Shown here one piece after another: positions 630 through 29,381 of a DNA stretch of 64,000 bases; the first letter of the stretch is position 1; every line of letters begins with the position of its first letter. The notes beneath the pieces are model-generated. The model was not told where the DNA came from. It saw only the letters and a list, made by a program, of their open reading frames with translations, and did not search any database. Made by a program: the position numbers and the translations under genes. Source of the DNA: Pseudomonadota bacterium (GTDB lineage: Bacteria > Pseudomonadota > Gammaproteobacteria > Acidiferrobacterales > UBA6901); NCBI GenBank assembly GCA_021785515.1, contig JAJYEX010000001.1, positions 62,001-126,000 on the forward strand, read 5' to 3'.

Positions 630-641
630 CTTTCCCCCTGG

Positions 642-1589: not shown

Positions 1590-1873
1590 TTTCAACGCCA
1601 TCCCCAGAACTGATGAACACATGCAATATCGGCGATCATCAGCCCAATCCCGGGACTGAAATCGTGCCGCGCCAGCGTCTCTGGCTTGAGGTGAAGCTCT
1701 GCGAAATTTTGCATGGCGCCCGTACCGGTCCTTTTATCGCTGCGCCGCCAATTATTATCACAATGCGACGTACGAACGAATCAAAATAGAGTCATGGACA
1801 GATTCTAGAGCAGATAATATACTTTCCGCAATAACCAGCACAAGCATTCGCTAACCCGAACGAGCCAGTCAGG
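1590..1873. promoter_or_regulatory. Divergent control region between CBASS and the BREX block
   Basis: About 280 bases separate the starts of capV (leftwards) and the WYL regulator (rightwards). The stretch 1740-1860 is clearly AT-richer than the genes on either side and holds a TAATAT hexamer near 1819, a possible -10 box for the rightward block, without a convincing -35 partner. BrxR-type WYL regulators are known to bind near their own promoters, so an operator is expected here, but I see no clean inverted repeat to call as one. Confidence 0.35.
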
Positions 1874-2779: not shown

Positions 2780-2780
2780 C

Positions 2781-4859
2781 GTGGCCTACGACCCAAATCG
2801 CGCGTTGGAACTGCTCCGCATCGGCTCCGGGCGCGCTGATGCCACTTTCCGCGACGGCCAAGAAGACGCCATTCGTCACATCGTAGAAGGCAAAGGTCGC
2901 TTGCTGGTCGTGCAGAAGACCGGGTGGGGCAAGAGCTTTGTCTACTTCATCGCGACCAAGTTGCTGCGGGAAGCTGGGGCCGGCCCCGCGTTATTGATCT
3001 CGCCGCTGCTGGCGCTGATGCGAAACCAGATCGCAGCGGCAGAGCGGATGGGGGTTCGCGCTGCCACCATCAACTCCGATAACCAGGATGAATGGAAATC
3101 GGTTGAAGCCAAGCTCCGTCGAAACGAAGTGGACATTCTGCTGATAGCGCCAGAAAAACTGGGTAACGACTGGTTTAACACAGAGGTTCTGGCTGGTATC
3201 GCAGGCCAGATTTCGCTGATGGTTATCGATGAGGCCCATTGCATTTCCGATTGGGGTCACGACTTCCGTCCTCACTACCGACTGCTGGAACGTATCGCCA
3301 GAACGCTTCCAGCCAATCTGCGCCTGCTGGCCACAACGGCAACAGCAAACGATCGGGTTATGGAGGACCTTGTGGCTGTGCTCGGCCCCAATATGAAGGT
3401 GCTGCGTGGTGACCTGAATCGAGGTTCTCTGACGCTGCAAACGATGCGTTTACCCAGTCAGGCTGTCCGTCTGGCATGGATCGCGCAACAACTCAGTTCA
3501 CTTCCAGGGCACGGCATCATTTACACACTCACTATCCGAGATGCCAATCAACTGGCGGATTGGCTCAAGGCCCGGGGCTTTGCTGTAGAGGCCTATACAG
3601 GTAAGACAGGTGACCGGCGTGAGGAGCTAGAGCAGGCTCTGCAGGAGAACAAGGTTAAGGCACTTGTCGCGACCACCGCATTGGGTATGGGCTACGACAA
3701 GCCGGACCTGGCATTCGTTATCCATTTTCAGATGCCCGGCTCAGTTGTCGCCTATTACCAGCAAGTAGGGCGCGCAGGAAGAGCGCTGGAATCTGCATAT
3801 GGCGTGCTCTTGAGCGGAGATGAAGAAGAAGGAATTACCGACTGGTTTATCCGTAGCGCGTTCCCAACTCGCCAAGAGGTAGACGATGTCCTGGGGGCTC
3901 TTAATGAAGCGCCGGAAGGACTTTCAATACCTGACCTCATGACCTGCGTGAACATGAGCAAAGGCCGCATCGAGAAGACGATCACGGCACTCTCTCTCGA
4001 ATCTCCAGCGCCGATCGCCAAGCAAGGTACGAAGTGGCAGCTTACTGCAGCCGAGCTAGGAGACGGATTCTGGGCGCGAGCAGACCGGCTCACCAAGTTG
4101 AGGCGTGCCGAACTCCAGCAAATGCAGGAATACGTCTCTCAGCCTTTTGGGCAGCACATGGGCTTTCTGATTGATGCGCTTGATGGCGATTCAAGCACTG
4201 TCAGCCCACCGTCGTTGCCGCCGCTGTCAGAAGACGTAGATCAGTTGCTGGTTCGGGAAGCTGAGGAATTTCTTTGTCGCACAAGTATGCCTATCGAGCC
4301 TCGCAAAAAATGGCCCGTGGGGGGAATGCCGCAGTACGGAATTCACACCGCATCCACCATTCCCTATCAAGCGCAGCCAGGCAAGGCCCTCTGCGTCTGG
4401 GGCGATGCCGGTTGGGGTGGCTTGGTTCGACAGGGCAAATACCACGACGGCCACTTTTCCGATGACCTCGTTGCTGCGTGCGTGAAGATGATTCAGGAGT
4501 GGAATCCGCAACCGAGCCCGACCTGGGTGACCTGCGTTCCATCGCTCCGGCATCCTGAATTGGTACCGAATTTCGCGCAACGCTTGGCTGCTGCGCTGGG
4601 TCTGCCGTTTCATATGGTCATCGCAAAAACAGACGCAAGGCCCGAACAGAAAACGATGGCAAACAGTACCCAACAGGCGCGCAACATTGATGGTTCGCTC
4701 GCACTCAACGGTCAGTCCATTCCTCCCGGCCCGGTCCTCCTGGTGGATGACATGGTCGACTCGCGCTGGACGCTGACGGTGTCTGCATGGCTGCTGCGCA
4801 AAAGCGGTAGTGGCGCAGTTTGGCCTATGGCCCTTTCACAGACGGGGCACGACGAATGA
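2781..4859 (+). CDS. RecQ-type helicase fused to a ComF-like phosphoribosyltransferase
   Basis: A 692-residue fusion protein. Residues 20-400 are a superfamily 2 helicase of RecQ type: Q-motif-like FRDGQEDAI (23-31), Walker A KTGWGKS (46-52), DEAH at about 148-151 followed by [11 protein letters not shown], and motif [11 protein letters not shown] near 325. Residues from about 510 form a phosphoribosyltransferase-like domain with a ComF-like segment ([17 protein letters not shown]). A PRPP-loop candidate, [14 protein letters not shown], lies near 651-666; it keeps the double aspartate but has Arg-Trp where TG or GxT is usual. The RQC and HRDC domains of cellular RecQ are not evident. The GTG start at 2781 has GGGAGAG upstream, and the stop overlaps the DprA-like ATG. 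ShosT toxins are phosphoribosyltransferases paired with a DprA-like partner; a ShosT-like role here is inference. Confidence 0.85.
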
Positions 4860-6244
4860 CGCCAGTCCTCTCACCCAACACCCAGGCGATCCTGCTGCTG
4901 ACTGCGCCGCTCATTGCCGGACGAGGTACTGCGTCATCGGATCTGCTCTCGCCTGGCGAGTACAAACGTCTCGCGCGTCATTTGCGCGAAATCCAGCGTC
5001 AGCCTGCGGATCTCCTCTCGCCGGACACAGCTGAGATCCTGCGTGCGTGCCAACCGGTGATTGACGAGAGCCGCCTGCAGAAATTGCTGGGGCGCGGATT
5101 CCTACTGAGCCAAGTGATCGAGCGCTGGCAAGCACGCGCCATTTGGGTGGTCAGCCGCGCCGATGCCGAGTATCCGCGTCGCCTGAAGGCTCGTCTTCGT
5201 GAAGATGCGCCGGCAGTGCTCTTTGGCTGTGGCGACATGGCTTTGCTCGAAACCGGCGGGCTTGCCGTCGTCGGATCGCGCCATGTGGACGACGCCTTGA
5301 TTGACTACACCATGTCCATCGGGCGACTGGCTGCCCGCGCCGGCAAGACGCTCGTGTCAGGCGGAGCCAAGGGTATCGATCAGGCCGCCATGCGTGGTGC
5401 GCTTGAGGGGGGTGGAAAAGTTTGTGGCGTGCTGGCGGATAGTCTGGAAAAGACCACCATGAACCGCGAGCACCGCAATCTGCTGCTTGATGGGCAACTG
5501 GTGCTGATTTCGCCCTACGACCCGAGTGCCGGGTTCAATGTGGGCAACGCCATGCAGCGGAACAAGTTGATTTATGCATTGGCAGACACCTCACTGGTGG
5601 TCAGCTCCGATCTCAACAAGGGGGGCACTTGGGCGGGTGCTGTCGAGCAGCTCGACAAACTCAAGTTCGTCCCGGTTTTCATTCGATCGACGGGCGAGTC
5701 TTCCGCCGGATTGGATGGTTTACGAAAGAAAGGCGCACTTCCCTGGCCGAACCCGCAGGACGTGGATTCGTTCGAGGACGTGTTCAACGTGGCGATGCCA
5801 ACTCCGACGGCTTCCCCACAGGTTGGTTTTGCGCTGTTTTCGAACGAAGAGCCAACGGCGCCCGTGCCACGCGACGCCGCGCCAACGCCACAGGCCGAGA
5901 GCGAGCCATTGGCGCCGGTCGACGTTGTTTCCGATGCGCCGCCCCCCGCACCGGCATTGGAAGAACCGCCCTCAGTCACACCAGAGGCCGTACCGCCGCT
6001 AGACGGGGCCGAGGAACCTCCGCAGCCAGAATCGACCCCGGCCGAAGTGCTCTTCGCTGCCGTGCGCGCAGCGATTCAGCAGCTATTGAGAACGCCGATG
6101 AAAGACGCCGAAGTGGCGGCCGCGCTGGACGTTTCTAACGCGCAGGCCAAGGCGTGGTTGCAGCGCTTGGTCGACGAAGGCGTATTAGAAAAGCAGAAGA
6201 AGCCAGCGGGCTACGTCGTCAAACAAAAACGGCTGTTCGAGTGA
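4856..6244 (+). CDS. DprA-like Rossmann-fold protein with winged-helix tail
   Basis: A 462-residue protein with the DprA/LOG fold: [10 protein letters not shown] (137-146), [13 protein letters not shown] (166-178), then [15 protein letters not shown] and an [10 protein letters not shown] segment in place of the canonical SGSLxTA. A proline- and alanine-rich linker at about 305-390 leads to a C-terminal winged helix ([20 protein letters not shown]). Housekeeping DprA loads RecA on incoming single-stranded DNA. This copy sits in a defence operon and overlaps the helicase-phosphoribosyltransferase gene by ATGA, so translational coupling and physical partnership are likely. An in-frame TTG at 4820 exists, but the ATG at 4856 is the natural coupled start. 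By analogy with ShosA it could be the antitoxin or DNA sensor of the pair; that is inference. Confidence 0.85.
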
Positions 6245-6316
6245 ACCCATGACGATGCATCGACTTAATCACCGCGCGCTGTACTCATCCGGAATCACGG
6301 AAGACGGGAGGTGCAG

Positions 6317-6772
6317 GTGATCGCAAAACTCGAACGACTCATCGGCGAAATCGGCGACCTCAACAGCAAGTTGATCCTGCTGGTCGGACCCAGCCGCAGC
6401 GGCAAGACCCAGCTGCTCCGACAATTGGGCGCCAAGCTCAGCATCGAGCCGCTCAACGTTGGCCTGGAGCTGGGGCGTCGTTTGGCTGCCACGCCGAACA
6501 ACAAGCGCGGCTTCTCGGCAGGCGAACTGCTGCGGGAGATCGCGGACAAGGAACGAACGGAAGACCCGCTGCTGCTCGACAACCTCGAGTTGTTGTTCGA
6601 GCCCAGCCTGCAGATCAACCCGCTTGACCTTGTCAGGCGGCTGGCTCACTCCAAGCGCGTCGTGGCCGTCTGGCCTGGCGAGCTGCGCGGCGACCGCTTG
6701 GTATACGCCGACATGAGCCATCCAGAACATCGTGACTACAGCCGCGACGGCGTGGTCGTACTCGAAATTTGA
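6317..6772 (+). CDS. brxF: BrxF, small P-loop ATPase of type 3 BREX
   Basis: A 151-residue P-loop protein with Walker A GPSRSGKT at 24-31 and an acidic hydrophobic strand (DPLLLDNLELLF) that could serve as Walker B. Size, fold and place directly before brxC match BrxF, the gene specific to type 3 BREX, whose exact biochemical role is not settled. GTG at 6317 is preferred over GTG at 6311 because GGGAGGTG then sits at a workable distance. It begins 72 bases after the DprA-like gene and ends 35 bases before brxC. Confidence 0.82.
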   Translation: MIAKLERLIGEIGDLNSKLILLVGPSRSGKTQLLRQLGAKLSIEPLNVGLELGRRLAATPNNKRGFSAGELLREIADKERTEDPLLLDNLELLFEPSLQINPLDLVRRLAHSKRVVAVWPGELRGDRLVYADMSHPEHRDYSRDGVVVLEI

Positions 6773-6807
6773 CCGAAATTGGAAACATCAGGGGAAGGTA
6801 GAACAAT

Positions 6808-9800
6808 ATGACCAAGAACATGAAATACGGAGATCTGATCCAGTTCGAGCAAATCGAGTCAGTCATACAGCTGCTCGACGCCGGGCGCCCAGATGAAGCA
6901 AAGAAGCTCGTCGCGACCTACGTCATCTCCGACGATATGGCCGAGCGTATCTCAAAGCTCATGGTTCCCCAGCTCAGTTTCGATGATTCTGTCGATCACA
7001 AGGGCGTGCTGATCGTCGGCAACTACGGTACCGGTAAGTCGCACTTGATGTCGGTGCTGTCGCTGGTGGCAGAAGACGCCGCTTACGCGCCGATGATCCG
7101 CCACCCGAAGGTCGCCGAAGCGGTTACCCCGATCGCCGGTCGCTTCAAGGTGCTGCGCATCGAGGTGGGTGGCCTGCAGATGCCGCTGCGCCAGATCATC
7201 ACCCTGCAGCTTGAGCGTTCCCTCGAAAAGCTCGGCGTCGATTACACCTTCCCGACCGCCGACAAAGAGCTCAACAACAAGGACTCCTTCGAGGAGATGA
7301 TGGCCGCCTTCGGCGAGAAATTCCCGGACCAGGGTTTGCTGCTGGTGGTCGATGAGTTCCTGGAGTACCTGCAGTCCCGTCGCGATCACGAACTGGTCCA
7401 GGATCTGGCCATCCTCCGTCAGATCGGCGAAGTCACCAAGCACCTGAAGTTCCGCTTCGTGGCCGGCGTGCAGGAAGCCATCTTCGACAGCGTGCGCTTC
7501 CAGCATGTGGCCGACAGCATGCGCCGGGTCAACGAGCGCTTCACCCAGATCCTGATCGACCGCCAGGACGTTAGCTTCGTTGTCTCCGCGCGTCTGCTCA
7601 AGAAGACTGCCGACCAGCAGAACAAGATCCGCGAATACCTCACGCCGTTCGCCAAGTTCTATGGTTCCATGAACGAACGCATGGACGAGTACGTGCGTCT
7701 GTTCCCGGTTCACCCGGATTACCTGAAGACCTTCGAGCAGATCCACTTCACCGAGAAGCGCGGCGCGCTCAAGACCATCGAGGCCGCCATGCTGGCCATC
7801 CTCAACCAGGAAGTGCCTGCCGACAAACCGTTGTTCATCAGCTACGAGAGCTTCTGGAACACCGTCAAAGCCAACTCGGTCCTGCGCGCCGACCCGAACA
7901 TCAAGGAAGTCATGCGCGTGTCCGAAGTGCTGGAGTCCCGCGTCCAGCAAGCCTTCACGCGCTCGGCCTACAAGGCCATGGCACTGCGGGTCATCAACGC
8001 CCTGGCCGTGCATCGTCTGACCACCGGCGGCGACATTCATGTGCCCATCGGCCCCACGGCCGCCGAGCTGCGTGACGCGCTGTGCCTGTTCCAGCCGGGC
8101 GTGGAGGACATGCCGGGCGATCCGGCCGAAAACTTGCTGTCGATGGTCCAGACCGTCATGCGGGAAGTTCTGAGAACCGTCAACGGCCAATTCATCTCCA
8201 AGGCGCCGGACACCGAGCAGTACTACCTCGACCTCAAGAAGGACATCGACTACGACGCGCAGATTGAAAAGCGCGCCGAAGCCCTGTCCGACGACGCACT
8301 CGACCGCGCCTACTACAGCGCGATCAAGGCGCTGATGGAGTGCAGCGACGATCTGCGTTACCCCGGCTTCCAGATCTGGCAGTACCAGATCGAGTGGCAG
8401 GAGCGCCGCGTCGAGCGCATGGGCTACCTGTTCTTTGGTGCGCCGAACGATCGCCCTACCGCCCAGCCCGAGCGCGACTTCTACATCTACTTCATCCAGC
8501 CATTCGACAAGCCGAAGTTCAGCGACAACAACCTAGCCGACGAAGTGTTCTTCCGCATGAAGTCGCCGGACGAAGACTACAAGCGCTACCTGTCGCAATA
8601 CGCGGCGGCACTGGATCTGGCGTCTACGGCCAGCGGTGGCGCGAAAGCCATCTACCTGTCCAAAGCCCAGGACTCGCTGCGGTCCATGAGCAAGTGGCTG
8701 CAGGAAAAGCAGATGACCGCGTTCGAGGTCACCTACCAGGGCAAGACCAAGACGCTGCAGGACTGGTCCAAGGGCGTGTCCCTGCGCGACCGAGCCCGAC
8801 TGGGTCCTGACGAGCGCATCAACTTCCGCGACGTGGTGAACATCGTCTCCGGCCTGGCCCTCGGCCAGCGCTTTGCCGATATCTCGCCCGAGTACCCCAC
8901 CTTTTCGGTGCTGGTCACCGAGGCCAACCGTAAGCAACTGGTGGGCAATGCGCTGCGCGCCCTGGCTGGCGGCACCCGTACCAAGGATGCCGCCGCCATC
9001 CTCGACGCGCTGGAGCTGCTCGATGGCGACCGCGTCGATCCCGCCAACTCGCGCTACGCACTGGAAGTGCTCAACCGCCTCAAGGCCAAGGGCCACGGCC
9101 AGGTGCTCAACCGCAGCGAACTGCTGTCGGGCACATCGGACGTCGAGTATTTCGCGCCGATCAAGTACCGGCTGGAGCCCGACCTGTTGGTCACCGTGCT
9201 GGGCGGCTTGGTCTATTCCGGCGACATCGTGTTGTCGATCACCGGCGACAAGATCGACTCCGGCAAGCTGGTGCAGCTTGCAGAACGCTCGCTGGAAGAG
9301 CTCAAGCAGTTCAAGCACGTGGAGGCGCCCAAGGAGATCAACCTCGCGTTGCTGCGTGCCTTGTTCGAGTTGTTCGACCTGCCGTCCGGCCTGGCGCAGA
9401 AGGCCAGCCAAGGCGACACCGAGCCGGTCATCAAACTGCAGGAAAAGGTCAGCGCGCTGGTGCTGCGCGTGCTCAAGGCCGGCTCCGACCTGCAGCAAGG
9501 CAAGCTCGGCTTCTGGGGCCAGAACCTGCTGCGCGAGGAAGAAGCCAAAGACTGGCATGCTCGGCTGGACTCATTGAAGAAGTTCACCGAGTCGCTGGCG
9601 CCGTACAACACCGTCGGCAAGCTCAAGAACCTGCGCGTCACCCAGGAAGACCTGGACGGCCAGAAGAAGAATCTGGAGATCCTGGCCGCCGTCGAGCGTC
9701 TGCTCGAACTGGTAATGGAGCTGGGCAGCACGGCGTCCTACCTCTCGCAGGCCGAGATGGTGTTGCCCGCCGAGCACCCATGGGTAAAGCAGGCCGAGGC

Positions 9801-10548
9801 GGCCCGCAAGGCCCTGCAGGACAAGCTGAGCCAGGACCGCACTGCCGAGCACGCCTCCGAATACCGGCAGACGCTCAACCAGCTCAAGAAGGACTACATC
9901 ACGGCCTACATCGCCAGCCATAGCAAGGCGCGGCTGGGCGTGGCCGAGGACAAGATCCGCAACGCCCTGCGCAAGGACGATCGTCTGCTGGCACTGCGCG
10001 TGTTGGCCGGCGTGTCGCTGATGCCCACCAGCCAGCTCACCGCCTTCGAGGGGTCGCTCAACGGCTTGAAGAGCTGCTCCTCGCTCGACGAGCCGACCTT
10101 AGTCACGGCCGCCGTTTGCCCACACTGCCAATTCCGCCCGTCTGCCGAGCAATTGGAGCTGATCCCGGCGGCCAACCGCCTGCACAAGCTGGATGACGAT
10201 CTGGACGAGCTGCTGGCCAACTGGCAGCAGACCCTGCTGGAGAACCTGGAAGACCCGTTCACGCAGGACAGCCTGGGGTTGCTGCCGCCGGCCTCCAAGA
10301 AGCTGATCGATGCCTTCCTGGCCTCACGCAAGCTGCCGGACCCGATGACCACCGAGTTTGCGAATGCCGTGCAGGAGGCGCTGTCGGGGCTTGAGAAGAT
10401 CGCGGTCAAGGGCGATGAGATCAAGCAAGCGCTGCTGCAAGGCGGCTCGCCAGCCACGCCGGACGAACTGCGCAAGCGCTTCGACACCTTCATGAACGAG
10501 CGCTGCAAGGGCAAGGATGCCACCAAGCTGCGCTTCGTGATCGAGTGA
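6808..10548 (+). CDS. brxC: BrxC/PglY, large AAA-type ATPase of BREX
   Basis: A 1,246-residue ATPase, the normal BrxC size. Walker A GNYGTGKS is at 71-78, and a Walker B candidate LLVVDEF lies near 178-184, followed by EYLQSRRDHE. The C-terminal part is long and helical, with one CPHC pair near 1105 that could be half of a zinc site. BrxC is essential for BREX restriction and methylation in studied systems and interacts with the methylase and PglZ. The gene is GC-rich (one sampled 60-base line is 70%), with strong GC bias at third positions, in contrast to the next gene. The ATG at 6808 follows AAGGTAGAAC. Confidence 0.92.
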   Translation: MTKNMKYGDLIQFEQIESVIQLLDAGRPDEAKKLVATYVISDDMAERISKLMVPQLSFDDSVDHKGVLIVGNYGTGKSHLMSVLSLVAEDAAYAPMIRHPKVAEAVTPIAGRFKVLRIEVGGLQMPLRQIITLQLERSLEKLGVDYTFPTADKELNNKDSFEEMMAAFGEKFPDQGLLLVVDEFLEYLQSRRDHELVQDLAILRQIGEVTKHLKFRFVAGVQEAIFDSVRFQHVADSMRRVNERFTQILIDRQDVSFVVSARLLKKTADQQNKIREYLTPFAKFYGSMNERMDEYVRLFPVHPDYLKTFEQIHFTEKRGALKTIEAAMLAILNQEVPADKPLFISYESFWNTVKANSVLRADPNIKEVMRVSEVLESRVQQAFTRSAYKAMALRVINALAVHRLTTGGDIHVPIGPTAAELRDALCLFQPGVEDMPGDPAENLLSMVQTVMREVLRTVNGQFISKAPDTEQYYLDLKKDIDYDAQIEKRAEALSDDALDRAYYSAIKALMECSDDLRYPGFQIWQYQIEWQERRVERMGYLFFGAPNDRPTAQPERDFYIYFIQPFDKPKFSDNNLADEVFFRMKSPDEDYKRYLSQYAAALDLASTASGGAKAIYLSKAQDSLRSMSKWLQEKQMTAFEVTYQGKTKTLQDWSKGVSLRDRARLGPDERINFRDVVNIVSGLALGQRFADISPEYPTFSVLVTEANRKQLVGNALRALAGGTRTKDAAAILDALELLDGDRVDPANSRYALEVLNRLKAKGHGQVLNRSELLSGTSDVEYFAPIKYRLEPDLLVTVLGGLVYSGDIVLSITGDKIDSGKLVQLAERSLEELKQFKHVEAPKEINLALLRALFELFDLPSGLAQKASQGDTEPVIKLQEKVSALVLRVLKAGSDLQQGKLGFWGQNLLREEEAKDWHARLDSLKKFTESLAPYNTVGKLKNLRVTQEDLDGQKKNLEILAAVERLLELVMELGSTASYLSQAEMVLPAEHPWVKQAEAARKALQDKLSQDRTAEHASEYRQTLNQLKKDYITAYIASHSKARLGVAEDKIRNALRKDDRLLALRVLAGVSLMPTSQLTAFEGSLNGLKSCSSLDEPTLVTAAVCPHCQFRPSAEQLELIPAANRLHKLDDDLDELLANWQQTLLENLEDPFTQDSLGLLPPASKKLIDAFLASRKLPDPMTTEFANAVQEALSGLEKIAVKGDEIKQALLQGGSPATPDELRKRFDTFMNERCKGKDATKLRFVIE

Positions 10549-10594
10549 CACGGTGACCGCTCGACCATGACAACAAGAATTTGAGGAACGACAG

Positions 10595-13369
10595 ATGAGT
10601 GATCTTTTCCAGAACCACGCGGCCAAGTCAGGCCCGGTTGAATGCCTCGGGCAAACGTTCCCGAGTGACGAGGCTCGCCGCGAGCACTACCTGAAGCTGC
10701 TTGCCGAGAAGCTCAAAGACCCTGAGTTCCGGAAAATTGAGGGGTTTCCGATTGGCACTGACGAGGCAATCCTTGCGTTGTCCGACCCGCCTTATTACAC
10801 GGCCTGCCCGAACCCGTTTGTCGAAGATTTCATTGAGTACTTTGGCAAGCCTTACGGGGCTGACGAGGTGTTCAGCAAAGAACCCTTTGCTGCCGATGTG
10901 AGTGAGGGCAAAAGCGACTCGATTTACGGCGCACACACGTATCACACTAAAGTTCCGCCGAAAGCAATTGCGCGATACCTCCTGCACTACACACAACCAG
11001 GTGACATTATTCTTGATGGATTTTCTGGCACAGGAATGACTGGTGTGGCTTCGCAATTATGCGGGGATAAAGCATTCATCGAGGAGCTAGGCTATCGCGT
11101 CGAAAAAGGCGGCGTGGTTAGTCGTAAAGAGAGGGAGGATGGCAAAGAAAGTTGGCGTGCATTTTCTAAAATGGGCTGTCGCCTTCCATTGCTAAATGAT
11201 CTGTCGCCGATAGCGACGTTCATAACAAATAACTATGGAAGGCTGTTTAGTGTTAACGATTTCTGCATTGAGGCCCTCGATGTTATTTCGAAGGTGGAAT
11301 CACAGATTGGCTGGGTGTATCAGCATGGTTCAGATCGAGTTTCAAATGGAATATGGTCAGATGTCTTTCATTGCCCAATTTGTACGGCAGAGGTTGTTTA
11401 TTGGGACGCTGCGGTTAGAAATGATGAAATCTCAAAAACTTTCGCTTGCCCATCCTGCGGTGGAGTTGTTGGCAAGGCTGCATCGAAGGATGACGGCGCA
11501 ATAAAACTGGATAGAGCTTACGAGTCGAAGTACGACAAATATCTTGGATCGGCCGCAAAGATGCCGAAGTTAGTCTTGGTCGAGCAAACAATAAAGAGGG
11601 GCAAGAAGTCGCTCCGAATCAAACCGGAATCCATCGAATTCGAAGAGTTGGTAAACAAGATCGAGTCACAGCCAGCGATTTCATCTGTGCCGATTCTGAA
11701 GTTTGAGGGTGGGCGTCAAACAAACAAGCTCATCAATGGGAGCGGTATTGAATATGTCCACTGGATGTATACCCCTAGAGCGCTCTATGTGTACGGTAGT
11801 TTGTGGGATGTGAGTCTTTCTAATCCCGCGTTCACTTCGCTATTTCGGTTCTGCCTCACCGGAATCAACAACTACATATCACGCAAGCAAGGATACTTTG
11901 GTGGTGGTGGTGGCGTTGCGGGAACTCTTTTCACTCCGTCCGTTCACCTTGAACGGAACATCTTTGATGTACTCCGGCGGAAAATAAAAGGAATTGCTGA
12001 AGTTAACAGGAAGTCTGCTCAGCGGGGCTGCGTGTCCACGCAGAGCTCCGGATGCCTCAGCAATATTCCATCGGAAACCGTTGACTACATTTTCATTGAT
12101 CCTCCTTTCGGTGAAAACTTTCAATATGCAGAATTAAATTCCTTTGCAGAAGCATGGTTAAAAGTTAAAACCGACACGCCGAACGATTGCGTCATGAATT
12201 ATGTGCACAAGAAAGATTTATCTTTCTACATGCACGCCATGAAATCAGCGTTCCGCGAGTTTTTTAGGGTTTTGAAACCTGGGCGCTGGATGACGGTGGA
12301 GTTTTCCAATACTCAAGCAAGTGTATGGAATGCAATTCAGTCTGGGCTTCAAGAAGCGGGATTTGTAGTCGCTAACGTTGCCGCTCTAGACAAGCAGCAA
12401 GGTAGCTTTAATGCAGTTACCAATACTACCTCCGTCAAACAAGATTTGGTCATCTCCGCATACAAGCCGAACGGCGGTTTAGAAGATCGGTTCCAGAAGG
12501 GTGGAGGAGGCATAGAGTCAGTATGGGATTTTGTTGCCACACACCTCGAGTACATAACAGTTGCCAAATTGAAGAATGGGAAGCTTGACTTCATCTCCGA
12601 GAGGGACCCGCGCATCATCTTTGATCGAATGGTGGCTTGGTTCATTCGGCACAATGTCCAAGTTCCTATGTCTACTCAGGAGTTCCAGGCCGGCCTAGTG
12701 CAGCGTTTCATTGAGCGTGATGGCATGGTCTTCCTGCCTGATCAGGTCACCGAGTACGACAAGAAGCGAATGCAGGTAGCGCAGGCACCGCAGATGGAGC
12801 TTTTCGTCTGCGACGAGCGCAGCGCTATTGACTGGCTAACTGATTTCCTTAAGCGCCGACCATCAACATATCAGGAGGTTCATCCGGAATTCATTAGCCA
12901 GCTCGGTGCCGGTTGGAAAAAGCACGAGTCGAAGCCTGAGTTGTCGGCACTGCTGGCAAACAACTTTATTGAGTACGACGGAGTCGGCGATGTGCCGCCG
13001 CAGATTCATAGTTACTTATCAACAAATCATAAAGACCTACGCAACCTAGACAAAAGCAGTCCGGCTTTAGTAACTAAAGCAAAAGATCGCTGGTATGTGC
13101 CTGATGCGAACAAAGCCCAGGACCTGGAGAAGAAGCGCGAGAAGGCGCTGCTCAAGGAATTCGAGGCCTATCGGTCTTTCACCGGTCGCAAGATCAAGGA
13201 GTCGCGTCTGGAGGTGCTGCGTGCTGGTTTCCGCGCTGCGTGGGCAGCCAAGGACTATCAGACCATCATCAGCATCGCCAACAAGCTGCCAGAGGAAACG
13301 CTGCAGGAAGACGAGAAGCTGCTGACGCTCTATGACCTCGCGCTAACCCGTACCGAGGACGGGATCTGA
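10595..13369 (+). CDS. pglXI: PglXI, Zn-ribbon adenine-specific DNA methylase of type 3 BREX
   Basis: A 924-residue SAM-dependent DNA methylase. It has an early DPPYYTACPNPF (64-75), the SAM-binding motif LDGFSGTGMTG at about 137-147, two CxxC pairs near 264 and 287 (CPIC, CPSC) forming a zinc ribbon, and a second DPPF near 500. This matches the Zn-ribbon adenine methylase group (COG1743) used by type 3 BREX to mark self DNA at N6-adenine. The ATG follows GAGGAACGAC. Base composition is mosaic: about 10960-13080 falls to 37-40% GC in sampled lines, while both ends are GC-rich like the neighbouring genes. The AT-rich core should hold the specificity region, so a swap of target recognition is plausible. 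Confidence 0.9.
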   Translation: MSDLFQNHAAKSGPVECLGQTFPSDEARREHYLKLLAEKLKDPEFRKIEGFPIGTDEAILALSDPPYYTACPNPFVEDFIEYFGKPYGADEVFSKEPFAADVSEGKSDSIYGAHTYHTKVPPKAIARYLLHYTQPGDIILDGFSGTGMTGVASQLCGDKAFIEELGYRVEKGGVVSRKEREDGKESWRAFSKMGCRLPLLNDLSPIATFITNNYGRLFSVNDFCIEALDVISKVESQIGWVYQHGSDRVSNGIWSDVFHCPICTAEVVYWDAAVRNDEISKTFACPSCGGVVGKAASKDDGAIKLDRAYESKYDKYLGSAAKMPKLVLVEQTIKRGKKSLRIKPESIEFEELVNKIESQPAISSVPILKFEGGRQTNKLINGSGIEYVHWMYTPRALYVYGSLWDVSLSNPAFTSLFRFCLTGINNYISRKQGYFGGGGGVAGTLFTPSVHLERNIFDVLRRKIKGIAEVNRKSAQRGCVSTQSSGCLSNIPSETVDYIFIDPPFGENFQYAELNSFAEAWLKVKTDTPNDCVMNYVHKKDLSFYMHAMKSAFREFFRVLKPGRWMTVEFSNTQASVWNAIQSGLQEAGFVVANVAALDKQQGSFNAVTNTTSVKQDLVISAYKPNGGLEDRFQKGGGGIESVWDFVATHLEYITVAKLKNGKLDFISERDPRIIFDRMVAWFIRHNVQVPMSTQEFQAGLVQRFIERDGMVFLPDQVTEYDKKRMQVAQAPQMELFVCDERSAIDWLTDFLKRRPSTYQEVHPEFISQLGAGWKKHESKPELSALLANNFIEYDGVGDVPPQIHSYLSTNHKDLRNLDKSSPALVTKAKDRWYVPDANKAQDLEKKREKALLKEFEAYRSFTGRKIKESRLEVLRAGFRAAWAAKDYQTIISIANKLPEETLQEDEKLLTLYDLALTRTEDGI

Positions 13370-13371
13370 AC

Positions 13372-16179
13372 GTGGCCAGCAGCGGGTTCACCATTGGCGA
13401 CTGGTGCTGGTTCACCCGGCAGGCATCGCCGTGCCGCGTGATCGAACGCCAGGACGTGTGGGGCGAGGTGACTTACCGCGTGTGGCTGCCCGCCAAGGAC
13501 GCGGTGGTGCGCGCTCGGGCGGTAGATCTGGCCTCGCTGGAAAGCGTGCGCCCGAGCGTGGAGCAGATCCTGCACACCACTGCGGCGGCCAAGTTGCTGG
13601 ATGCACTGGAGGACAACCTGCTGTTGGCGCCCATCCAGTCCAGCGTGGTGCCGCTGCCGCATCAGCTCTATGCGCTGAACCGAGCCATCAGTCGCGACCG
13701 CATCCGCTACCTGCTGGCCGATGAGGTGGGCCTGGGAAAGACCATTGAGGCCGGCTTGGTGCTGCGCGAATTGAAGTTGCGTGGCCGAGTAAAGCGCATC
13801 CTGGTGGTTGCGCCCAAGGGGCTGGTGCGCCAATGGCAGGCAGAGATGCGTCTGCACTTCGGCGAGAAGTTTCAGTTCATCGAGCCGTCCGAACTGGCGG
13901 CCTTCCGGCAGTGGCGCAGCGGCGGCGCAGGCGAGGAAGAAAACCTGTGGCGCATGCACGACCAGGTGATCTGTTCGCTGGATTCGGTAAAGCCGCTGGA
14001 AGGCCGTCGTGGCTGGAGCCTGGAGCAACTCAACACCTACAACCGCGAGCGCTTCGAGGACCTGATCTCGGCGTCGTGGGATCTGGTCATCATCGATGAA
14101 GCTCACCGCATGGGCGGCAGCACCGAACAGGTGGCTCGCTACAAGCTGGGCGCCGCGCTGGCCGAGGCATCGCCCTATCTCTTGTTGCTGTCGGCTACTC
14201 CGCACCAGGGCAAGACCGACCAGTTCATGCGGCTGATGCAGTTGCTGGACCGCGAAGCCTTCCCGGACGAGAGCAGCGTCAGCCGTGACCGGGTACGGCC
14301 CTTCGTGATCCGCACCGAAAAGCGTGTGTCCATCAATGCGGAATGTCAGCCGCTGTTCAAGCCGCGTGTCACCAGGCTGCAGGCGGTGGCCTGGCAGGCC
14401 CGACACGGCTCGCAACAGCGGCTGTACGAAGCGGTGACCGACTATGTGCGCCACGGCTACAACCAGGCCATGGCCGCCAAGCAACGCCACATCGGCTTCT
14501 TGATGATCCTGATGCAGCGGCTGGTGACGTCCAGTACAGCAGCCATCCGCACCACGCTGGAAAAGCGCCAAGCTTTGCTCGATGCGCCTCAACCGCAGGC
14601 CAACCTGTTCGAGAACACCAGCGCCGACGAGTGGGCAGACCTGGACGGCCAGTCCCAGGTGGATCTGGCCATGCAGTCCAGTGGCTGGGAGCTGGAGAAG
14701 TCCGAAGTCGAAATGCTGCTGGAGCTGGCGCGGGAAACCGAGGCCGCGGGCACCGACGCCAAGGCCGAGGCACTGCTGGAGTTGATCTACAAGCTGCAGC
14801 AGGAGGAAGGCGACCCGGCGCTGAAGGTGCTGATCTTCACCGAGTTCGTGCCCACGCAAGCGATGCTGGCTGATTTCCTGGAGAGCCGTGGCTTTTCGGT
14901 GACGACGCTCAACGGCAGCATGGATCTGGAAACCCGCACCCGTGCGCAGCAGACGTTCTCCAAGGATGTGCGCGTGTTGATCTCGACGGACGCCGGGGGT
15001 GAAGGTCTGAACCTGCAGTTCTGCCACGTCATCGTCAACTTCGACATGCCGTGGAATCCGATGCGGATCGAACAGCGCATTGGCCGGGTGGACCGTATTG
15101 GGCAGAAGCATGTGGTCCGCGCCATCAACTTCGTGCTCGAAGACACTGTGGAGCATCGAGTGCGCCAGGTGTTGGAGGCAAAGCTCGAGGTCATCGCGCA
15201 GGAGTTTGGCGTCGACAAGGCGGCTGACGTGATGGATTCGGTCGAGGCCGACCCGATCTTCGACGAGCTGTTCGTGCATGGTCTGCAGAACCCGGATGCC
15301 ATCGAACAAGAGTGCGACGCGGTGGTGTCGCAGCTGCGAACCACCTTGGCGGAGTCGAAGAAGAACAGCGATCTGCTCACCACAGAGCACGATCTGGACG
15401 CCGACGATGCCCGCAAGTGGCGCGACCACCCGGCGCAGTTCTGGCTGGAGCGCGCCATCACCAGCGGGCTGGCTGCGCGCGGCGGCTCGGCAATGAAGGT
15501 TGGCAAGGCGTGGCGAGTGAAGTGGGCGGACGGCAGCGAGTCGGCGCAGGCCTGTTTTGACGCCCGCACGGCGGATGAAAACCCGGAGTTGGAATGGGTA
15601 ACGATGGAAGACCCACGCGCCCGTGCAGTGATCAGTGAGCTGCCACGCTTTGTCGCTGGGCAGCCGCTGCCGGTGATCCGCGTGACCGGGCTGCCGGATT
15701 CGGTCCGCGGCATCTGGTCGCTGTGGGAGATCAGTCTGGCGGCTGAAGGTTTGAGCCGGAAGCGCTTCCTGCCGGTGTTCATCAACGAGGAAGGCCGGCC
15801 CTTCGTGCCGACCGCGAAACGCGTCTGGGATCTGCTGCTCACTGAAACCGTAGACGTGCATGCCGTGACGGGTGCCGAGGAGTCAGCGAAGTGGTTCGAG
15901 GCATCGCATGCGGCTGCCAGTACCCAGGGCGAACGGATCTTCACTGAACTGCTGACCGAACACCGCGCCCGGCTGAAGGAAGAACGCGAGCGTGCGGTGT
16001 ATGCGTTCGAGGCCCGAGGTCAGGCCATTGGACGAATCGGCCTGCCCGCCGTGAGGGAGCACCGGCGCAAGCGGCTGCAACAAGAACACAATGCACGCCT
16101 GGCCGCCCTGGACGACATGGAGGCTAGCGTGCCGGATTTGAATGCCGTGATGATGGTGCGCGTCGGAGGTGATGCATGA
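13372..16179 (+). CDS. brxHII: BrxHII, SNF2-like helicase of type 3 BREX
   Basis: A 935-residue superfamily 2 (SNF2/RapA-like) ATPase. Walker A lies in DEVGLGKTIEAGL near 115-127, DEAH near 240 (IIDEAHRMGG), SATPHQGKTDQF follows, and helicase motif VI is EQRIGRVDRIGQ near 566-577. It starts with GTG two bases after the methylase stop, and its end overlaps pglZ by ATGA. BrxHII helicases occur in type 3 and type 5 BREX. The role is presumed DNA translocation or remodelling during restriction; it has not been resolved to a mechanism that the sequence could show. Confidence 0.9.
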   Translation: MASSGFTIGDWCWFTRQASPCRVIERQDVWGEVTYRVWLPAKDAVVRARAVDLASLESVRPSVEQILHTTAAAKLLDALEDNLLLAPIQSSVVPLPHQLYALNRAISRDRIRYLLADEVGLGKTIEAGLVLRELKLRGRVKRILVVAPKGLVRQWQAEMRLHFGEKFQFIEPSELAAFRQWRSGGAGEEENLWRMHDQVICSLDSVKPLEGRRGWSLEQLNTYNRERFEDLISASWDLVIIDEAHRMGGSTEQVARYKLGAALAEASPYLLLLSATPHQGKTDQFMRLMQLLDREAFPDESSVSRDRVRPFVIRTEKRVSINAECQPLFKPRVTRLQAVAWQARHGSQQRLYEAVTDYVRHGYNQAMAAKQRHIGFLMILMQRLVTSSTAAIRTTLEKRQALLDAPQPQANLFENTSADEWADLDGQSQVDLAMQSSGWELEKSEVEMLLELARETEAAGTDAKAEALLELIYKLQQEEGDPALKVLIFTEFVPTQAMLADFLESRGFSVTTLNGSMDLETRTRAQQTFSKDVRVLISTDAGGEGLNLQFCHVIVNFDMPWNPMRIEQRIGRVDRIGQKHVVRAINFVLEDTVEHRVRQVLEAKLEVIAQEFGVDKAADVMDSVEADPIFDELFVHGLQNPDAIEQECDAVVSQLRTTLAESKKNSDLLTTEHDLDADDARKWRDHPAQFWLERAITSGLAARGGSAMKVGKAWRVKWADGSESAQACFDARTADENPELEWVTMEDPRARAVISELPRFVAGQPLPVIRVTGLPDSVRGIWSLWEISLAAEGLSRKRFLPVFINEEGRPFVPTAKRVWDLLLTETVDVHAVTGAEESAKWFEASHAAASTQGERIFTELLTEHRARLKEERERAVYAFEARGQAIGRIGLPAVREHRRKRLQQEHNARLAALDDMEASVPDLNAVMMVRVGGDA

Positions 16180-18191
16180 GCCTTTGGACGGAACGCATCC
16201 TGAGCCACTTCACGGCCGACCTCACCCGACTGTGGGTGGCGTGCGACCCTGATGATGTGTTGCTCGACGAGAAGCTATTGACCGAACTGCGCGGTCGCGG
16301 TTTTGAGCTGATGCTGTACGAAGACCCGTTTTCCTTCCGCGCGGAATATGAGGAACGCTACCGCGCTGCATGGGACCGGGGTGAGCAAGGGCCAGCGCCC
16401 TCGCTAGTTCTGCATCTGCGTAGCGCCGACGCGAATGCGTTGCCGTGGGACATCGTGCATCACGGGCGAGTGGTGCGTCTCAGCCTTGCCGATCTGTTCT
16501 CCAAGCTGGCTTACAGCGCCGTGCAGCAGGTTGAGCCTGAGCATTTTGCCGGGCTGTTTCATGCCCACCAGACGGAATTGCAGAGTGCACGCGGCGAGAA
16601 CGAGTCGAAGGACTTCATCCTCGAACACGTCTACCAACTGGCGCCGAGGTCGATTCGCAACCCGGTCGACTTCTGGCGTGAGCTGCTACGCATGCACTTC
16701 GCCAATCGCTCGCTACCGCCCCTATTCGCCCAGCACGCGGCGAGCATCATCCAAGGCAAGGGGCTGTTCGCCGACCAACCCGTCACCACATGGCTGGCAT
16801 CCAAGAGTGCGCTGCTGCGCGTGGTGCAGGATGCTTGGTATCGCTACCTGAAGACACTTAGGCTGGATGGCAACCGTACTAGCGAACCGCCACCACCCGA
16901 TTACATCGCCAAGATCGAGATTCCGTTCGATCACTCCGATGTGCAGGTACTGGTCGACTCCATGTTCCTCGATGGCAGCTTGCATCCGCTGGCGGTGCAC
17001 AGCGTTCCGGCGGGGATGCCGAGTTGGATCAAGGCCGGCATTGTTCAGGACCCGGCGGCATTGCAGGCCTTGGTGCTTAAGGGCATCGATGGGCTGATCG
17101 AGACGACGCCGACGGCGGCATCTTCGCACAAGGACTGGAGCGAGTTCGCCAAGCGCTACGGTGAGATCCTGGCCCGCACGCATGGTCTGCCCGGCACGGA
17201 AGGTAGCGAACACTTGCCAGTGATTCGGGAGCGGATCAAGACATTGCAGGCGCAATCAGACGAGCATCTGCAAGCCTGGGTCGCAGCCAAGCATTACGCC
17301 GACCTGATTCTACAGCCAGTGACCAAGGGCCCGGTGATGGTGCACCACGTGCCGCGCTTCTTGCGCCATCGTCGGTCCGCAGGGGAAACCAAGGTCGCTC
17401 TGCTGGTCTTCGACGGGCTGGCCTTCGACCAATGGGTGCAGATCCGCGAGCGTCTGATCGCCACCACGAAACGATTCGCGTTCGACGAGGGAACCGCGTT
17501 TGCATGGCTGCCGACCGTGACATCGGTGTCGCGCCAGGCCCTGTTCTCCGGCCTGAAGCCACGTGAGTTCGACGATTCCATCGACCGGACGGACAAGGAG
17601 GAATCCTTGTGGAAGACGTTCTGGAAAAACGAAGGCGTCAACTCGAATGAGGTGATGTACCGACGCGCACTGCGCCAAGTCGATCAACTGGACGTGCTTG
17701 AGGCGGACTTGAACGACCGGCGCCCAAAGGTGGTGGGCCTGGTCATCGATGAAATGGATGACCGGCTCCACAAGGAGCGGTCGAAGAAAGACGTGGCGAT
17801 GTGGATCGGCAACTGGCTGACAACCGGTTTCGTCGACCGGCTGTTCTCGCTGCTGCTGGACAAGGGATACCACATCTATCTCACGGCGGACCACGGCAAT
17901 GTGGAGTCCACCGGCGTCGGCAGACCCAACCAGGGCGTCATTGCCGAGACGCGCGGCGAGCGCGTCCGGGTCTATCGGAGCGAACCATTGCTGGCCGATT
18001 CCGCTGCGGCCTATCCCACCACGGTGAGGTTGGACATCGCTGGACTACCCGCGAACTTCATGCCCCTATTCGCAGGCGGACGGACCGCCTTTGTGCCGGA
18101 GGGCGAGCAGGTGGTGGTCCACGGCGGGGTGTCGATCGAAGAGTTGATCGTGCCCTTTGTGAAAGTCAGTTATGTGATTGGTACTGAATGA
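16176..18191 (+). CDS. pglZ: PglZ, alkaline-phosphatase-superfamily BREX protein
   Basis: A 671-residue protein whose C-terminal half carries the PglZ domain. It shows the metal-binding strand VALLVFDGLAFDQW (about 406-419), the nucleophile region LPTVTSVSRQALFSG, and the second metal motif LTADHGNVES near 569. PglZ is the signature BREX protein of the alkaline phosphatase superfamily and is required for BREX function. The ATG overlaps the brxHII stop, and its own stop overlaps brxA, so translation is probably coupled across all three genes. The key acidic and histidine residues are all present, so it looks functional. Confidence 0.92.
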   Translation: MSLWTERILSHFTADLTRLWVACDPDDVLLDEKLLTELRGRGFELMLYEDPFSFRAEYEERYRAAWDRGEQGPAPSLVLHLRSADANALPWDIVHHGRVVRLSLADLFSKLAYSAVQQVEPEHFAGLFHAHQTELQSARGENESKDFILEHVYQLAPRSIRNPVDFWRELLRMHFANRSLPPLFAQHAASIIQGKGLFADQPVTTWLASKSALLRVVQDAWYRYLKTLRLDGNRTSEPPPPDYIAKIEIPFDHSDVQVLVDSMFLDGSLHPLAVHSVPAGMPSWIKAGIVQDPAALQALVLKGIDGLIETTPTAASSHKDWSEFAKRYGEILARTHGLPGTEGSEHLPVIRERIKTLQAQSDEHLQAWVAAKHYADLILQPVTKGPVMVHHVPRFLRHRRSAGETKVALLVFDGLAFDQWVQIRERLIATTKRFAFDEGTAFAWLPTVTSVSRQALFSGLKPREFDDSIDRTDKEESLWKTFWKNEGVNSNEVMYRRALRQVDQLDVLEADLNDRRPKVVGLVIDEMDDRLHKERSKKDVAMWIGNWLTTGFVDRLFSLLLDKGYHIYLTADHGNVESTGVGRPNQGVIAETRGERVRVYRSEPLLADSAAAYPTTVRLDIAGLPANFMPLFAGGRTAFVPEGEQVVVHGGVSIEELIVPFVKVSYVIGTE

Positions 18192-18910
18192 ATTCATCAA
18201 GTCCAAAAATAGGCTTTGATCGGTTCATTCGGCTTGATTGGACGGCTGCGGCACTGAATATTCGTGCGGGCGTGGCTGGGCTAGATGATCTGAATGCACT
18301 GCTTGATGCAGCCGAGCTTGGCGTGGAAGCCAAGAAGAAAACACGCACCGTATTGAATCGGCTGTGGCTGGAGCCACGCGCCGAACTGCTCGACTACGCG
18401 GATCGCGGCGTGGCCATCCGCAACACGCAACCAGACATTCCAGTCGCTGCGCTGTGCTGGGGCATGTCCGTGGCGACGTACCCGTTCTTTGGCAAGGTGG
18501 CCGAGCTGGTGGGCCGCCTGTCCGCCATCCAGGGCGACTGCGCGTCCGCCGAGGTGCATCGGCGGATGAGCGAAACCTATGGGGAGCGCGAAGGCACCCG
18601 GCGCATGACCAACATGGTCATCCAGAGCCAGGCGAGCTGGGGAGCTGTGGAGCGGGTTGAGAAAGGCAAGCGTGTCATCCGGCTGGCGCCAACACCGATC
18701 GACAACGACGAACTCACGGCCTGGTTGATCGAGGCGGCTGTGCGCTACGTCGGAAAGCCTGTTTCAGTGTCCAGCCTGCAGTCGCTGCCCGTGCTGTTCC
18801 CATTCACCCTGACGAGACCTCTGGCCTACGTGGTGTCGAACAGTGCGAACCTGATCCTTCGGTCGGAAGGACCGAGCAACCAGTTTGTCGCTTTGCGCAG
18901 CACGATTTGA
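18188..18910 (+). CDS. brxA: BrxA (DUF1819-like), small BREX protein
   Basis: A 240-residue soluble protein with no signal peptide or membrane segment. The segment YPFFGKVAELVGRLSAI followed by MSETYGEREGTRRM resembles the BrxA/DUF1819 family, small helical DNA-binding proteins of BREX. The assignment leans also on position: in type 3 BREX brxA is the last gene after pglZ, exactly as here, joined by an ATGA overlap. A brxB is not expected in type 3 and none is seen. Confidence 0.75.
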   Translation: MNSSSPKIGFDRFIRLDWTAAALNIRAGVAGLDDLNALLDAAELGVEAKKKTRTVLNRLWLEPRAELLDYADRGVAIRNTQPDIPVAALCWGMSVATYPFFGKVAELVGRLSAIQGDCASAEVHRRMSETYGEREGTRRMTNMVIQSQASWGAVERVEKGKRVIRLAPTPIDNDELTAWLIEAAVRYVGKPVSVSSLQSLPVLFPFTLTRPLAYVVSNSANLILRSEGPSNQFVALRSTI

Positions 18911-18928
18911 AGAAGAAGGAAGAAGAGA

Positions 18929-29194: not shown

Positions 29195-29303
29195 CTGCCA
29201 TCTTCCCTTGGCCCGAAACCCAAAGAAAGTCTACGTCGAATTACAGCGTAATTACAACAAATGGCAATTTATGAGGAGTAATAGATTCTAAGTCATTGAT
29301 TAT

Positions 29304-29381
<78 letters not shown>

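What the first reader, a model, noticed from the sequence alone, without database searches (positions are those of the whole stretch)
6317..18910. Complete type 3 BREX locus
brxF, brxC, a Zn-ribbon adenine methylase, brxHII, pglZ and brxA occur in exactly the order given for type 3 BREX, with all key motifs intact and gaps of 46 bases or less, or short overlaps, from brxF on. Type 3 is far less studied than type 1.
Basis: partly seen in the sequence, partly recalled or inferred. Interest (0 to 1): 0.55.

Follow-up and report, generated by a model that had tools for sequence, protein, structure and literature searches.

The report
Type 3 BREX with swappable parts
This is an intact but already known kind of bacterial anti-virus system (type 3 BREX); its ten-gene run also holds a toxin-like gene pair and an extra DNA-cutting enzyme, and comparison with relatives shows that the part thought to read the DNA target is swapped between strains while the rest stays much the same.

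Summary
Six intact genes match brxF, brxC, pglXI, brxHII, pglZ and brxA of type 3 BREX, with gaps of at most 46 bases or 4-base overlaps. As a type this is known.

The unit is wider than reported: ten co-directional genes (1874-20764): a BrxR-type WYL regulator, PsyrT-PsyrA (RecQ helicase with a phosphoribosyltransferase site; DprA-like), BREX-3, then a GmrSD-type gene. The only plus-strand promoter-like site found (1795-1823) precedes the regulator and is shared with relatives lacking PsyrTA. The run rides on a 46.8 kb integrative element at tRNA-Thr.

Two results go further. First, across 68 PglXI sequences, PglXI is uncoupled from the core (rank correlation with BrxC about 0 over residues 89-632; 0.49-0.89 for BrxF, BrxHII, PglZ, BrxA); its Zn-finger insert is exchanged between loci. 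Second, PsyrTA lies directly before brxF in 5 of 84 relatives (regulator visible in three), apparently moving between BREX-3 lineages; it also sits inside type I restriction operons.

Methylation and defence were not testable. Verdict: new variant of a known kind.

The parts
1795..1823 (+). promoter-like site TGGACA-17-TATACT upstream of the WYL gene
   Evidence: only + strand promoter-like site in 1600-20900, although fewer sites were found (2) than in shuffles (mean 5.4); TATAC at the -10 place in 24 of 27 aligned WYL loci, window included; exceptions L037, L043, L102
1874..2779 (+). brxR: WYL-domain regulator
   Evidence: PADLOC WYL, Pfam PF13280; PDB 7qfz (BrxR of pEFER) E 1.7e-84, chain position Arg17 aligned to Arg16 here
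2781..4859 (+). psyrT: RecQ-type helicase with C-terminal phosphoribosyltransferase site DDMVD at residue 656
   Evidence: PADLOC PsyrT 907 bits; motifs
4856..6244 (+). psyrA: DprA-like; ORF opens at TTG 4820, but ATG 4856 overlaps the psyrT stop by 4 bases
   Evidence: PADLOC PsyrA 478 bits, Pfam PF02481, sequence
6317..6772 (+). brxF
   Evidence: NCBIfam NF033453 176.5 bits, cut-off 50; PADLOC BrxF
6808..10548 (+). brxC of type 3 (DUF6079)
   Evidence: PADLOC 1840 bits, PF19557 1950 bits
10595..13369 (+). pglXI (brxXI): adenine methyltransferase
   Evidence: PADLOC PglXI 1173 bits; FSGTG143, DPPF502; AlphaFold pLDDT 79.7
11180..12085 (+). part of pglXI coding residues 196-497: insert that carries the four-cysteine site, taken as the target recognition domain
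13372..16179 (+). brxHII: Swi2/Snf2 helicase
   Evidence: PADLOC 1460 bits
16176..18191 (+). pglZ of type 3
   Evidence: NCBIfam NF033449 739.6 bits, cut-off 250
18188..18910 (+). brxA
   Evidence: PADLOC BrxA 236 bits
18929..20764 (+). GmrSD-family (DUF262 + HNH) type IV restriction gene, BrxU-like by family
   Evidence: PF03235 136.6 and PF07510 75.9 bits, both over cut-off; DGQQR75, EHILP491
28196..29194 (-). tyrosine integrase of the carrier element
   Evidence: PF00589
29304..29349 (-). end of tRNA-Thr (CGT), 46-base att repeat; its exact partner lies 46,820 bases to the left, outside the window

Best explanation
The locus is a complete type 3 BREX system built as a stable set of core genes with exchangeable parts. 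PglXI is inferred to methylate one adenine motif in the host genome, read by its Zn-finger insert; BrxF, BrxC, BrxHII, PglZ and BrxA are inferred to arrest DNA that lacks the mark. BrxR represses the promoter in front of the run and so sets the level of all genes behind it (inferred from BrxR of pEFER). PsyrTA sits second in the run. It is inferred to be a backup: PsyrA holds the toxic phosphoribosyltransferase activity of PsyrT in check until infection disturbs that balance. The GmrSD enzyme is inferred to cut phage DNA whose modified bases escape BREX. Shown here: gene content, order, intact motifs, the shared regulator and promoter region, the uncoupling of PglXI from the core genes, and recurrence of PsyrTA directly before brxF. 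Suggested by few sequences: movement of PsyrTA between BREX-3 lineages. Not shown: transcription as one unit, methylation, defence, or any interaction of PsyrTA with BREX.
For: Families. Ten co-directional genes, gaps 1, -4 (with ATG 4856), 72, 35, 46, 2, -4, -4, 18. Exchange of PglXI: in 68 sequences (2278 pairs) insert identity has a median of 34% for BrxC pairs of 95-100% identity (59 pairs) and also 34% for 60-72% pairs (763); L036-L079 share 95% of the insert at 73% BrxC identity, L054-L070 91% at 68%. Rank correlation with BrxC is 0.00-0.06 in windows over residues 45-632, against BrxF 0.79, BrxHII 0.65, PglZ 0.89, BrxA 0.49 (67, 51, 41 and 33 sequences). PglXI of both pairs is far more alike than BrxC and drops at its last 100 columns. 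The insert lies between the methylase motifs in the model. PsyrTA or its visible end directly before brxF: window plus L031, L037, L055, L058, L066 of 84 loci; the regulator is seen in front in L031, L037 and L055, while L058 and L066 begin inside the pair. PsyrA of L055 is 85% identical to that of L058 (BrxC 73%) but 78% to the window (BrxC 92%). WYL lies directly before brxF in 40 of 72 loci. Literature: RqlH toxicity lies in its phosphoribosyltransferase domain and RqlI restrains it (PMC4670107, passages); BrxU complements BREX (PMC8565348, passages); BrxR represses (PMC9122601, passages).
Against: No expression, methylation or phage data. PsyrTA is a minority accessory: 5 of 84 relatives chosen for similarity to this BrxC, and 2 of 14 BrxF-positive genomes in the wider samples, of which one is the window's own and the other, G200, is the same contig as L066 and has its PsyrT on another contig; one of the 14 (G191) is cut off just before brxF. 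Of ten sampled genomes with a full or nearly full PsyrT, three were seen to have it in or next to a modification system. L031 has an extra reading frame between WYL and PsyrT. L037 has a diverged promoter region. PsyrTA of strain NILS69, cloned in E. coli K-12, gave no detectable protection against 15 phages and the strain had a growth defect (PMC12409345, section 8). The insert matches no solved structure, so its role as recognition domain rests on position and variability. The PsyrTA exchange rests on a handful of sequences and could also be read as movement of the core genes.
Confidence: 0.72

Rival explanations
1. PsyrTA and GmrSD are ordinary neighbours in a defence island; they share a strand with BREX-3 by chance and work alone.
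For: PsyrT and PsyrA occur with no BREX match in the stretches L141, L142, L143 and L147, and PsyrT in L156 with no BREX (and no psyrA) annotated. The island, with a CBASS-like pair at its left edge, rides on one integrative element.
Against: In all five relatives that have it (of 84) it lies directly before brxF, under the same regulator in the three where that is visible and, in L031 and L055, the same promoter region; psyrT begins one base after brxR; the pair appears to have moved between BREX-3 lineages at this place.
Confidence: 0.35
2. The PglXI insert differs because it evolves fast by point changes under phage pressure, not because it is exchanged.
For: Recognition domains are known to diverge fast (stated in PMC12839542, section 25); the median pair shares only about a third of residues.
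Against: Pairs with distant core genes share nearly the same PglXI (L036-L079, L054-L070) with a drop near the gene's end, and 8 of 10 multi-member insert groups (single linkage at 60%) mix near and distant BrxC.
Confidence: 0.08
3. The system is intact in sequence but silent or serves only as an orphan methylase.
For: Nothing here measures expression.
Against: All core motifs looked for are intact and no frameshift was seen in ten genes.
Confidence: 0.1

Closest known systems
Type 3 BREX (Rakesh and Krishnan 2026, PMC12839542; abstract, sections 25 part 1, 35 part 1 and 40 read)
   Same: Six core genes; methyltransferase with an insert that bears four cysteines; that paper also predicts the insert to be the recognition domain and lists GmrSD and Schlafen genes as auxiliary effectors.
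   Different: In the parts read, and in a term search of its main text (RecQ 0, DprA 0, WYL 2, both in the reference list), PsyrTA in the BREX-3 run is not described; no exchange of PglXI between loci is shown in the parts read. Its figures and supplements were not seen.
Type 1 BREX of plasmid pEFER (PMC8565348, passages; PMC9122601, passages)
   Same: BrxR regulator in front, GmrSD-family BrxU in the locus.
   Different: Type 1 core genes; brxU lies between brxC and pglX, here the GmrSD gene follows brxA; no PsyrTA is named in the passages seen.
PsyrTA / RqlHI (PMC4670107, passages)
   Same: RecQ-like helicase with phosphoribosyltransferase domain plus DprA-like partner in one operon.
   Different: There a two-gene unit; a term search by word start found restriction 0, hsd 0, phage 0 in that paper. 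Here inside a BREX-3 run.
Type I restriction operons with PsyrTA between hsdS and hsdR
   Same: PsyrTA embedded in a methylation-based defence operon: E. coli plasmid L157, L140, and a 10 kb block covered to at least 80% in 53 of 5426 E. coli genomes (12 of 54 records listed).
   Different: Different host system and a distant PsyrT (48-50% identical).

Membership tests
Type 3 BREX | BrxF | tested here: met
   NCBIfam NF033453 176.5 bits, cut-off 50
Type 3 BREX | BrxC of the DUF6079 kind | tested here: met
   PF19557 1950 bits, PADLOC 1840 bits; general NCBIfam BrxC model 48.6, below its cut-off 400
Type 3 BREX | PglXI/BrxXI with motifs and four-cysteine insert | tested here: met
   PADLOC 1173 bits; cysteines invariant in 45 of 45 aligned; model
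Type 3 BREX | BrxHII helicase | tested here: met
   PADLOC 1460 bits; no NCBIfam model over its cut-off
Type 3 BREX | PglZ of type 3 | tested here: met
   NCBIfam NF033449 739.6 bits, cut-off 250
Type 3 BREX | BrxA | tested here: met
   PADLOC 236 bits; nothing in Pfam or NCBIfam
Type 3 BREX | gene order brxF-brxC-pglXI-brxHII-pglZ-brxA (order recalled) | tested here: met
   same order on plasmid L026
Type 3 BREX | site-specific adenine methylation and phage exclusion | not testable with these tools
   needs host methylome and phage assays
PsyrTA | full-length RecQ-phosphoribosyltransferase protein followed by DprA-like protein | tested here: met
   PADLOC PsyrT residues 3-691 and PsyrA 14-468; site DDMVD
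PsyrTA | toxicity of PsyrT and relief by PsyrA | not testable with these tools
   needs expression
BrxR regulators | similarity to solved BrxR and DNA-contact arginine | tested here: met
   7qfz E 1.7e-84; Arg16 aligned to chain position 17 (role of Arg17 from PMC9122601 passages, if its numbering is that of the chain)
BrxR regulators | inverted-repeat operator before the gene | tested here: inconclusive
   only one 10-nt palindrome, at 1700-1713, far from the promoter-like site
GmrSD / BrxU | DUF262 and HNH domains in one protein | tested here: met
   PF03235 and PF07510 over cut-offs
GmrSD / BrxU | close relation to BrxU itself | tested here: inconclusive
   PDB sequence search found only 9jfl and SspE

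The most novel reading that the evidence does not exclude
PsyrTA has become a guard module of methylation-based barriers. Placed behind the BREX regulator in BREX-3 and between hsdS and hsdR in type I systems, it would kill or arrest the cell when a phage disables the barrier, so that BREX-3 here is a three-layer unit (mark and exclude, cut modified DNA, abort) whose target reader and abort module are both exchangeable cassettes.
Probability: 0.25. Interest if true: 0.75.

Novelty: new variant of a known kind. Interest (0 to 1): 0.45.

Why it matters
How BREX stops phages remains largely undetermined (PMC12205998, abstract), and type 3 is less studied at the bench than type 1 (recalled). Natural sets of loci with very similar core genes but different PglXI inserts (25 loci with BrxC at 90% or more, 20 of them with full-length PglXI) are ready-made swap experiments: they make the proposal that the insert sets the target motif directly testable. 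The recurrent PsyrTA position gives a concrete case in which a toxin-like pair appears wired into a methylation-based system.

Tried and rejected
Considered and dropped: that brxF or the 18188-18910 gene belong to other families. That cargo lies between the window's core genes: none; the slots brxC-pglXI (insert over 300 bases in 50 of 80 relatives) and pglXI-brxHII (18 of 64) are empty here (the counts rest on tblastn ends and include loci with partial PglXI). That PsyrTA is typical of BREX-3: it is a minority (5 of 84; 2 of 14). What stands before brxF in the remaining 28 of 72 loci was not worked out. A known fold for the insert: folded alone (pLDDT 86) it gave no PDB sequence hit up to E 0.1, best Foldseek E 0.34, best VIA Z 3.6 over 43 residues of 8slg and best E 0.033 in viral models; this does not show that the fold is new. 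An operator palindrome near the regulator promoter was not found. Paper searches that showed nothing on PsyrTA in type 3 BREX: 0 papers with both terms; 9 papers with PsyrTA and BREX; only PMC12409345 opened; 1 paper, not opened; 35 papers, 15 listed; only PMC4670107 opened. PglXI/BrxXI: (4 papers; only PMC12839542 opened). Only open-licence PubMed Central papers are searched.

Full report
What was checked. The window lies on an 851,967-base contig of a 3.05 Mb genome. Six plus-strand genes from 6317 to 18910 were scanned against PADLOC, Pfam and NCBIfam. They are BrxF, BrxC (DUF6079), PglXI, BrxHII, PglZ of type 3 and BrxA, each covered over nearly its full PADLOC profile. Three results weigh against a clean sweep: the general NCBIfam BrxC model falls short of its cut-off (48.6 of 400), no NCBIfam model reaches its cut-off on PglXI or BrxHII, and BrxA is unknown to Pfam and NCBIfam. 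The type 3 order is recalled from the first BREX survey and is matched on a Leisingera thetidis plasmid. Motifs are intact.

The unit is larger. Upstream on the same strand lie a WYL gene (1874-2779), psyrT (2781-4859) and psyrA (to 6244); downstream follows a GmrSD-family gene (18929-20764). The WYL protein matches BrxR of pEFER (PDB 7qfz, E 1.7e-84) and keeps the arginine that PMC9122601 found essential for repression. The WYL stop and the psyrT start are one base apart, psyrA can start at ATG 4856 across the psyrT stop, and 72 bases separate psyrA from brxF. The scan of 1600-20900 found one plus-strand promoter-like site, at 1795-1823 in front of the WYL gene; the total of 2 sites is below the shuffle mean of 5.4, so the match alone proves nothing. 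TATAC stands at its -10 place in 24 of 27 aligned WYL loci (window included), with and without PsyrTA; L037, L043 and L102 differ.

The carrier. An exact 46-base repeat of the tRNA-Thr (CGT) end lies at contig positions 44484 and 91304 (window 29304), with a tyrosine integrase beside the tRNA copy and MobF relaxase and coupling-protein genes inside. The BREX run is therefore most likely cargo of an integrative element of about 46.8 kb. Two further partial copies of the repeat at 43318 and 34313 suggest that other elements have landed there.

PglXI is exchanged. A scan of genome contigs (84,980 species genomes) with a BrxC alignment gave 332 confirmed relatives, of which the best 80 were kept; with four plasmid loci this made 84. 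In the 25 loci with BrxC at 90% identity or more, the mean identity to the window in blocks of 50 residues is 82-100% for BrxC (25 loci), BrxHII (16) and PglZ (11), while PglXI (20 full-length cases, blocks of 25) falls to 15-47% between residues 151 and 500 and is 51-88% after residue 550. Over all 68 full-length PglXI (2278 pairs) the insert has a median identity of 34% whether BrxC is 95-100% or 60-72% identical; the window's insert is at most 30% identical to any other by that alignment and 33% by another. Rank correlation with BrxC identity is 0.00-0.06 for PglXI windows from residue 45 to 632, 0.13 at residues 1-60, rises to 0.61 at the last 44 residues, and is 0.79, 0.65, 0.89, 0.49 and 0.53 for BrxF, BrxHII, PglZ, BrxA and WYL. 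L036 and L079 share 91-98% of PglXI in the first nine blocks of 100 columns, then 70%, between BrxC at 54-84% and BrxHII at 72-88% in the part that L079 holds. L054 and L070 show 79-97%, then 63%, beside BrxC at 52-84% and BrxHII at 56-89%; three further pairs show weaker contrasts. Eight of ten multi-member insert groups mix near and distant BrxC. This points to exchange and not only to fast drift. Cysteines 260, 263, 285 and 288 are invariant in 45 of 45 aligned sequences. In the AlphaFold model (pLDDT 79.7) about 175 of residues 95-627 align to Rossmann methylases (best Z 17.4, rmsd 2.7, 178 aligned), so a large insert lies between motif FSGTG and DPPF. PMC12839542 (sections 25 part 1, 35 part 1 and 40 read) predicts the insert to be the recognition domain from structure; the exchange data here are independent support.

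Slots. Inserts of over 300 bases lie between brxC and pglXI in 50 of 80 loci and between pglXI and brxHII in 18 of 64, but in 0 of 82 between brxF and brxC, 1 of 51 between brxHII and pglZ and 0 of 39 between pglZ and brxA. Among the representatives scanned are a Schlafen-type protein (group seen in 20 loci), an AAA_21 ATPase (PADLOC PDC-M07A), DUF4276 proteins, a PD-T7-3 match and a SIR2-HerA pair; some had no match. More distant type 3 loci break this pattern: L149 has 3.2 kb, and L181 a second pglXI, between brxF and brxC. The window has no cargo in these slots.

PsyrTA. It lies directly before brxF in L031, L037, L055, L058 and L066 (5 of 84) and in the window; WYL is visible in front of it in L031, L037 and L055, whereas L058 and L066 begin inside the pair. 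In L031 an extra reading frame separates WYL from psyrT. WYL lies directly before brxF in 40 of the 72 loci with enough upstream sequence, PsyrTA in 4, something else in 28. PsyrA of L055 is closer to L058 (85%; BrxC 73%, BrxF 56%) than to the window (78%; BrxC 92%, BrxF 91%), which suggests that the pair moved between BREX-3 lineages at one place, or that the core genes moved around it. Wider samples were less generous: 8 of 369 and 7 of 398 genomes are over the BrxF cut-off, 14 together as the window's genome is in both; 2 of the 14 have PsyrA before brxF, the window's and G200, whose contig is L066 and whose WYL-PsyrT end is on another contig; G191 is cut off before brxF. Of ten genomes with full or nearly full PsyrT, three were seen with it in or next to a modification system: the window's, G200 and G352 (hsdM-hsdS-psyrT-psyrA-hsdR). 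In the stretches of G267, G225, G070, G226, G097 and G083 no BREX gene matched; neighbours were scanned by Pfam in only some of these, and those of G289 were not examined. A 10 kb block from hsdM to hsdR with PsyrTA inside is held by 53 of 5426 E. coli genomes.

How it most likely works. Marking of the host motif by PglXI, exclusion of unmarked DNA by the core proteins, and repression by BrxR follow from work on other BREX types (PMC9122601 and PMC11341690, passages; PMC12205998, abstract). PsyrT keeps its helicase motifs and the acidic phosphoribosyltransferase site; in RqlH the toxicity lies in that domain and needs that site, and RqlI restrains it (PMC4670107, passages). Against a general defence role, PsyrTA of strain NILS69 in E. 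coli K-12 gave no detectable protection against 15 phages, and the strain had a growth defect (PMC12409345, section 8). A backup or abortive role beside BREX is inference. A GmrSD-family enzyme as cover against phages with modified bases is shown for BrxU of pEFER (PMC8565348, passages) and inferred here.

Verdict. An intact new member of type 3 BREX; with PsyrTA between regulator and brxF a variant that the searches made did not find described. Interest moderate: the core finding is ordinary, the exchange data and the PsyrTA position are not.

Noticed in passing
window 3-1622 (-): Patatin-like phospholipase (NCBIfam DS2_1_antiphage 507 bits) next to a SMODS nucleotidyltransferase: a CBASS-like pair divergent from the brxR gene; L031 carries the same pair.
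   Followed up: partly
window 28196-29379 and host contig 44484: 46.8 kb integrative element at tRNA-Thr (CGT) with MobF relaxase and coupling protein; further partial att copies to its left.
   Followed up: partly
L181 7145-9994: A second full-length pglXI match lies between brxF and brxC, so one type 3 locus may carry two methyltransferases.
   Followed up: no
L031 4587-5333: An extra reading frame sits between the WYL gene and psyrT.
   Followed up: no
L029 13489-18230: Klebsiella IncN plasmid where, in the stretch fetched, only brxC and a short piece of pglXI matched the window's genes, with a small gene at the brxF place, beside arsenic genes: a decayed type 3 locus.
   Followed up: no
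L140 5108-15217; L157 4682-14761: PsyrTA inside type I restriction operons between hsdS and hsdR.
   Followed up: partly
L102 15708-19270: A SIR2-HerA defence pair nested between brxC and pglXI.
   Followed up: no
L099 6309-6731; L048 17287-18630; L058 7500-9494: Recurrent cargo proteins in the brxC-pglXI slot without a Pfam match; the first and third also without a PADLOC match (the second was not tested there).
   Followed up: no
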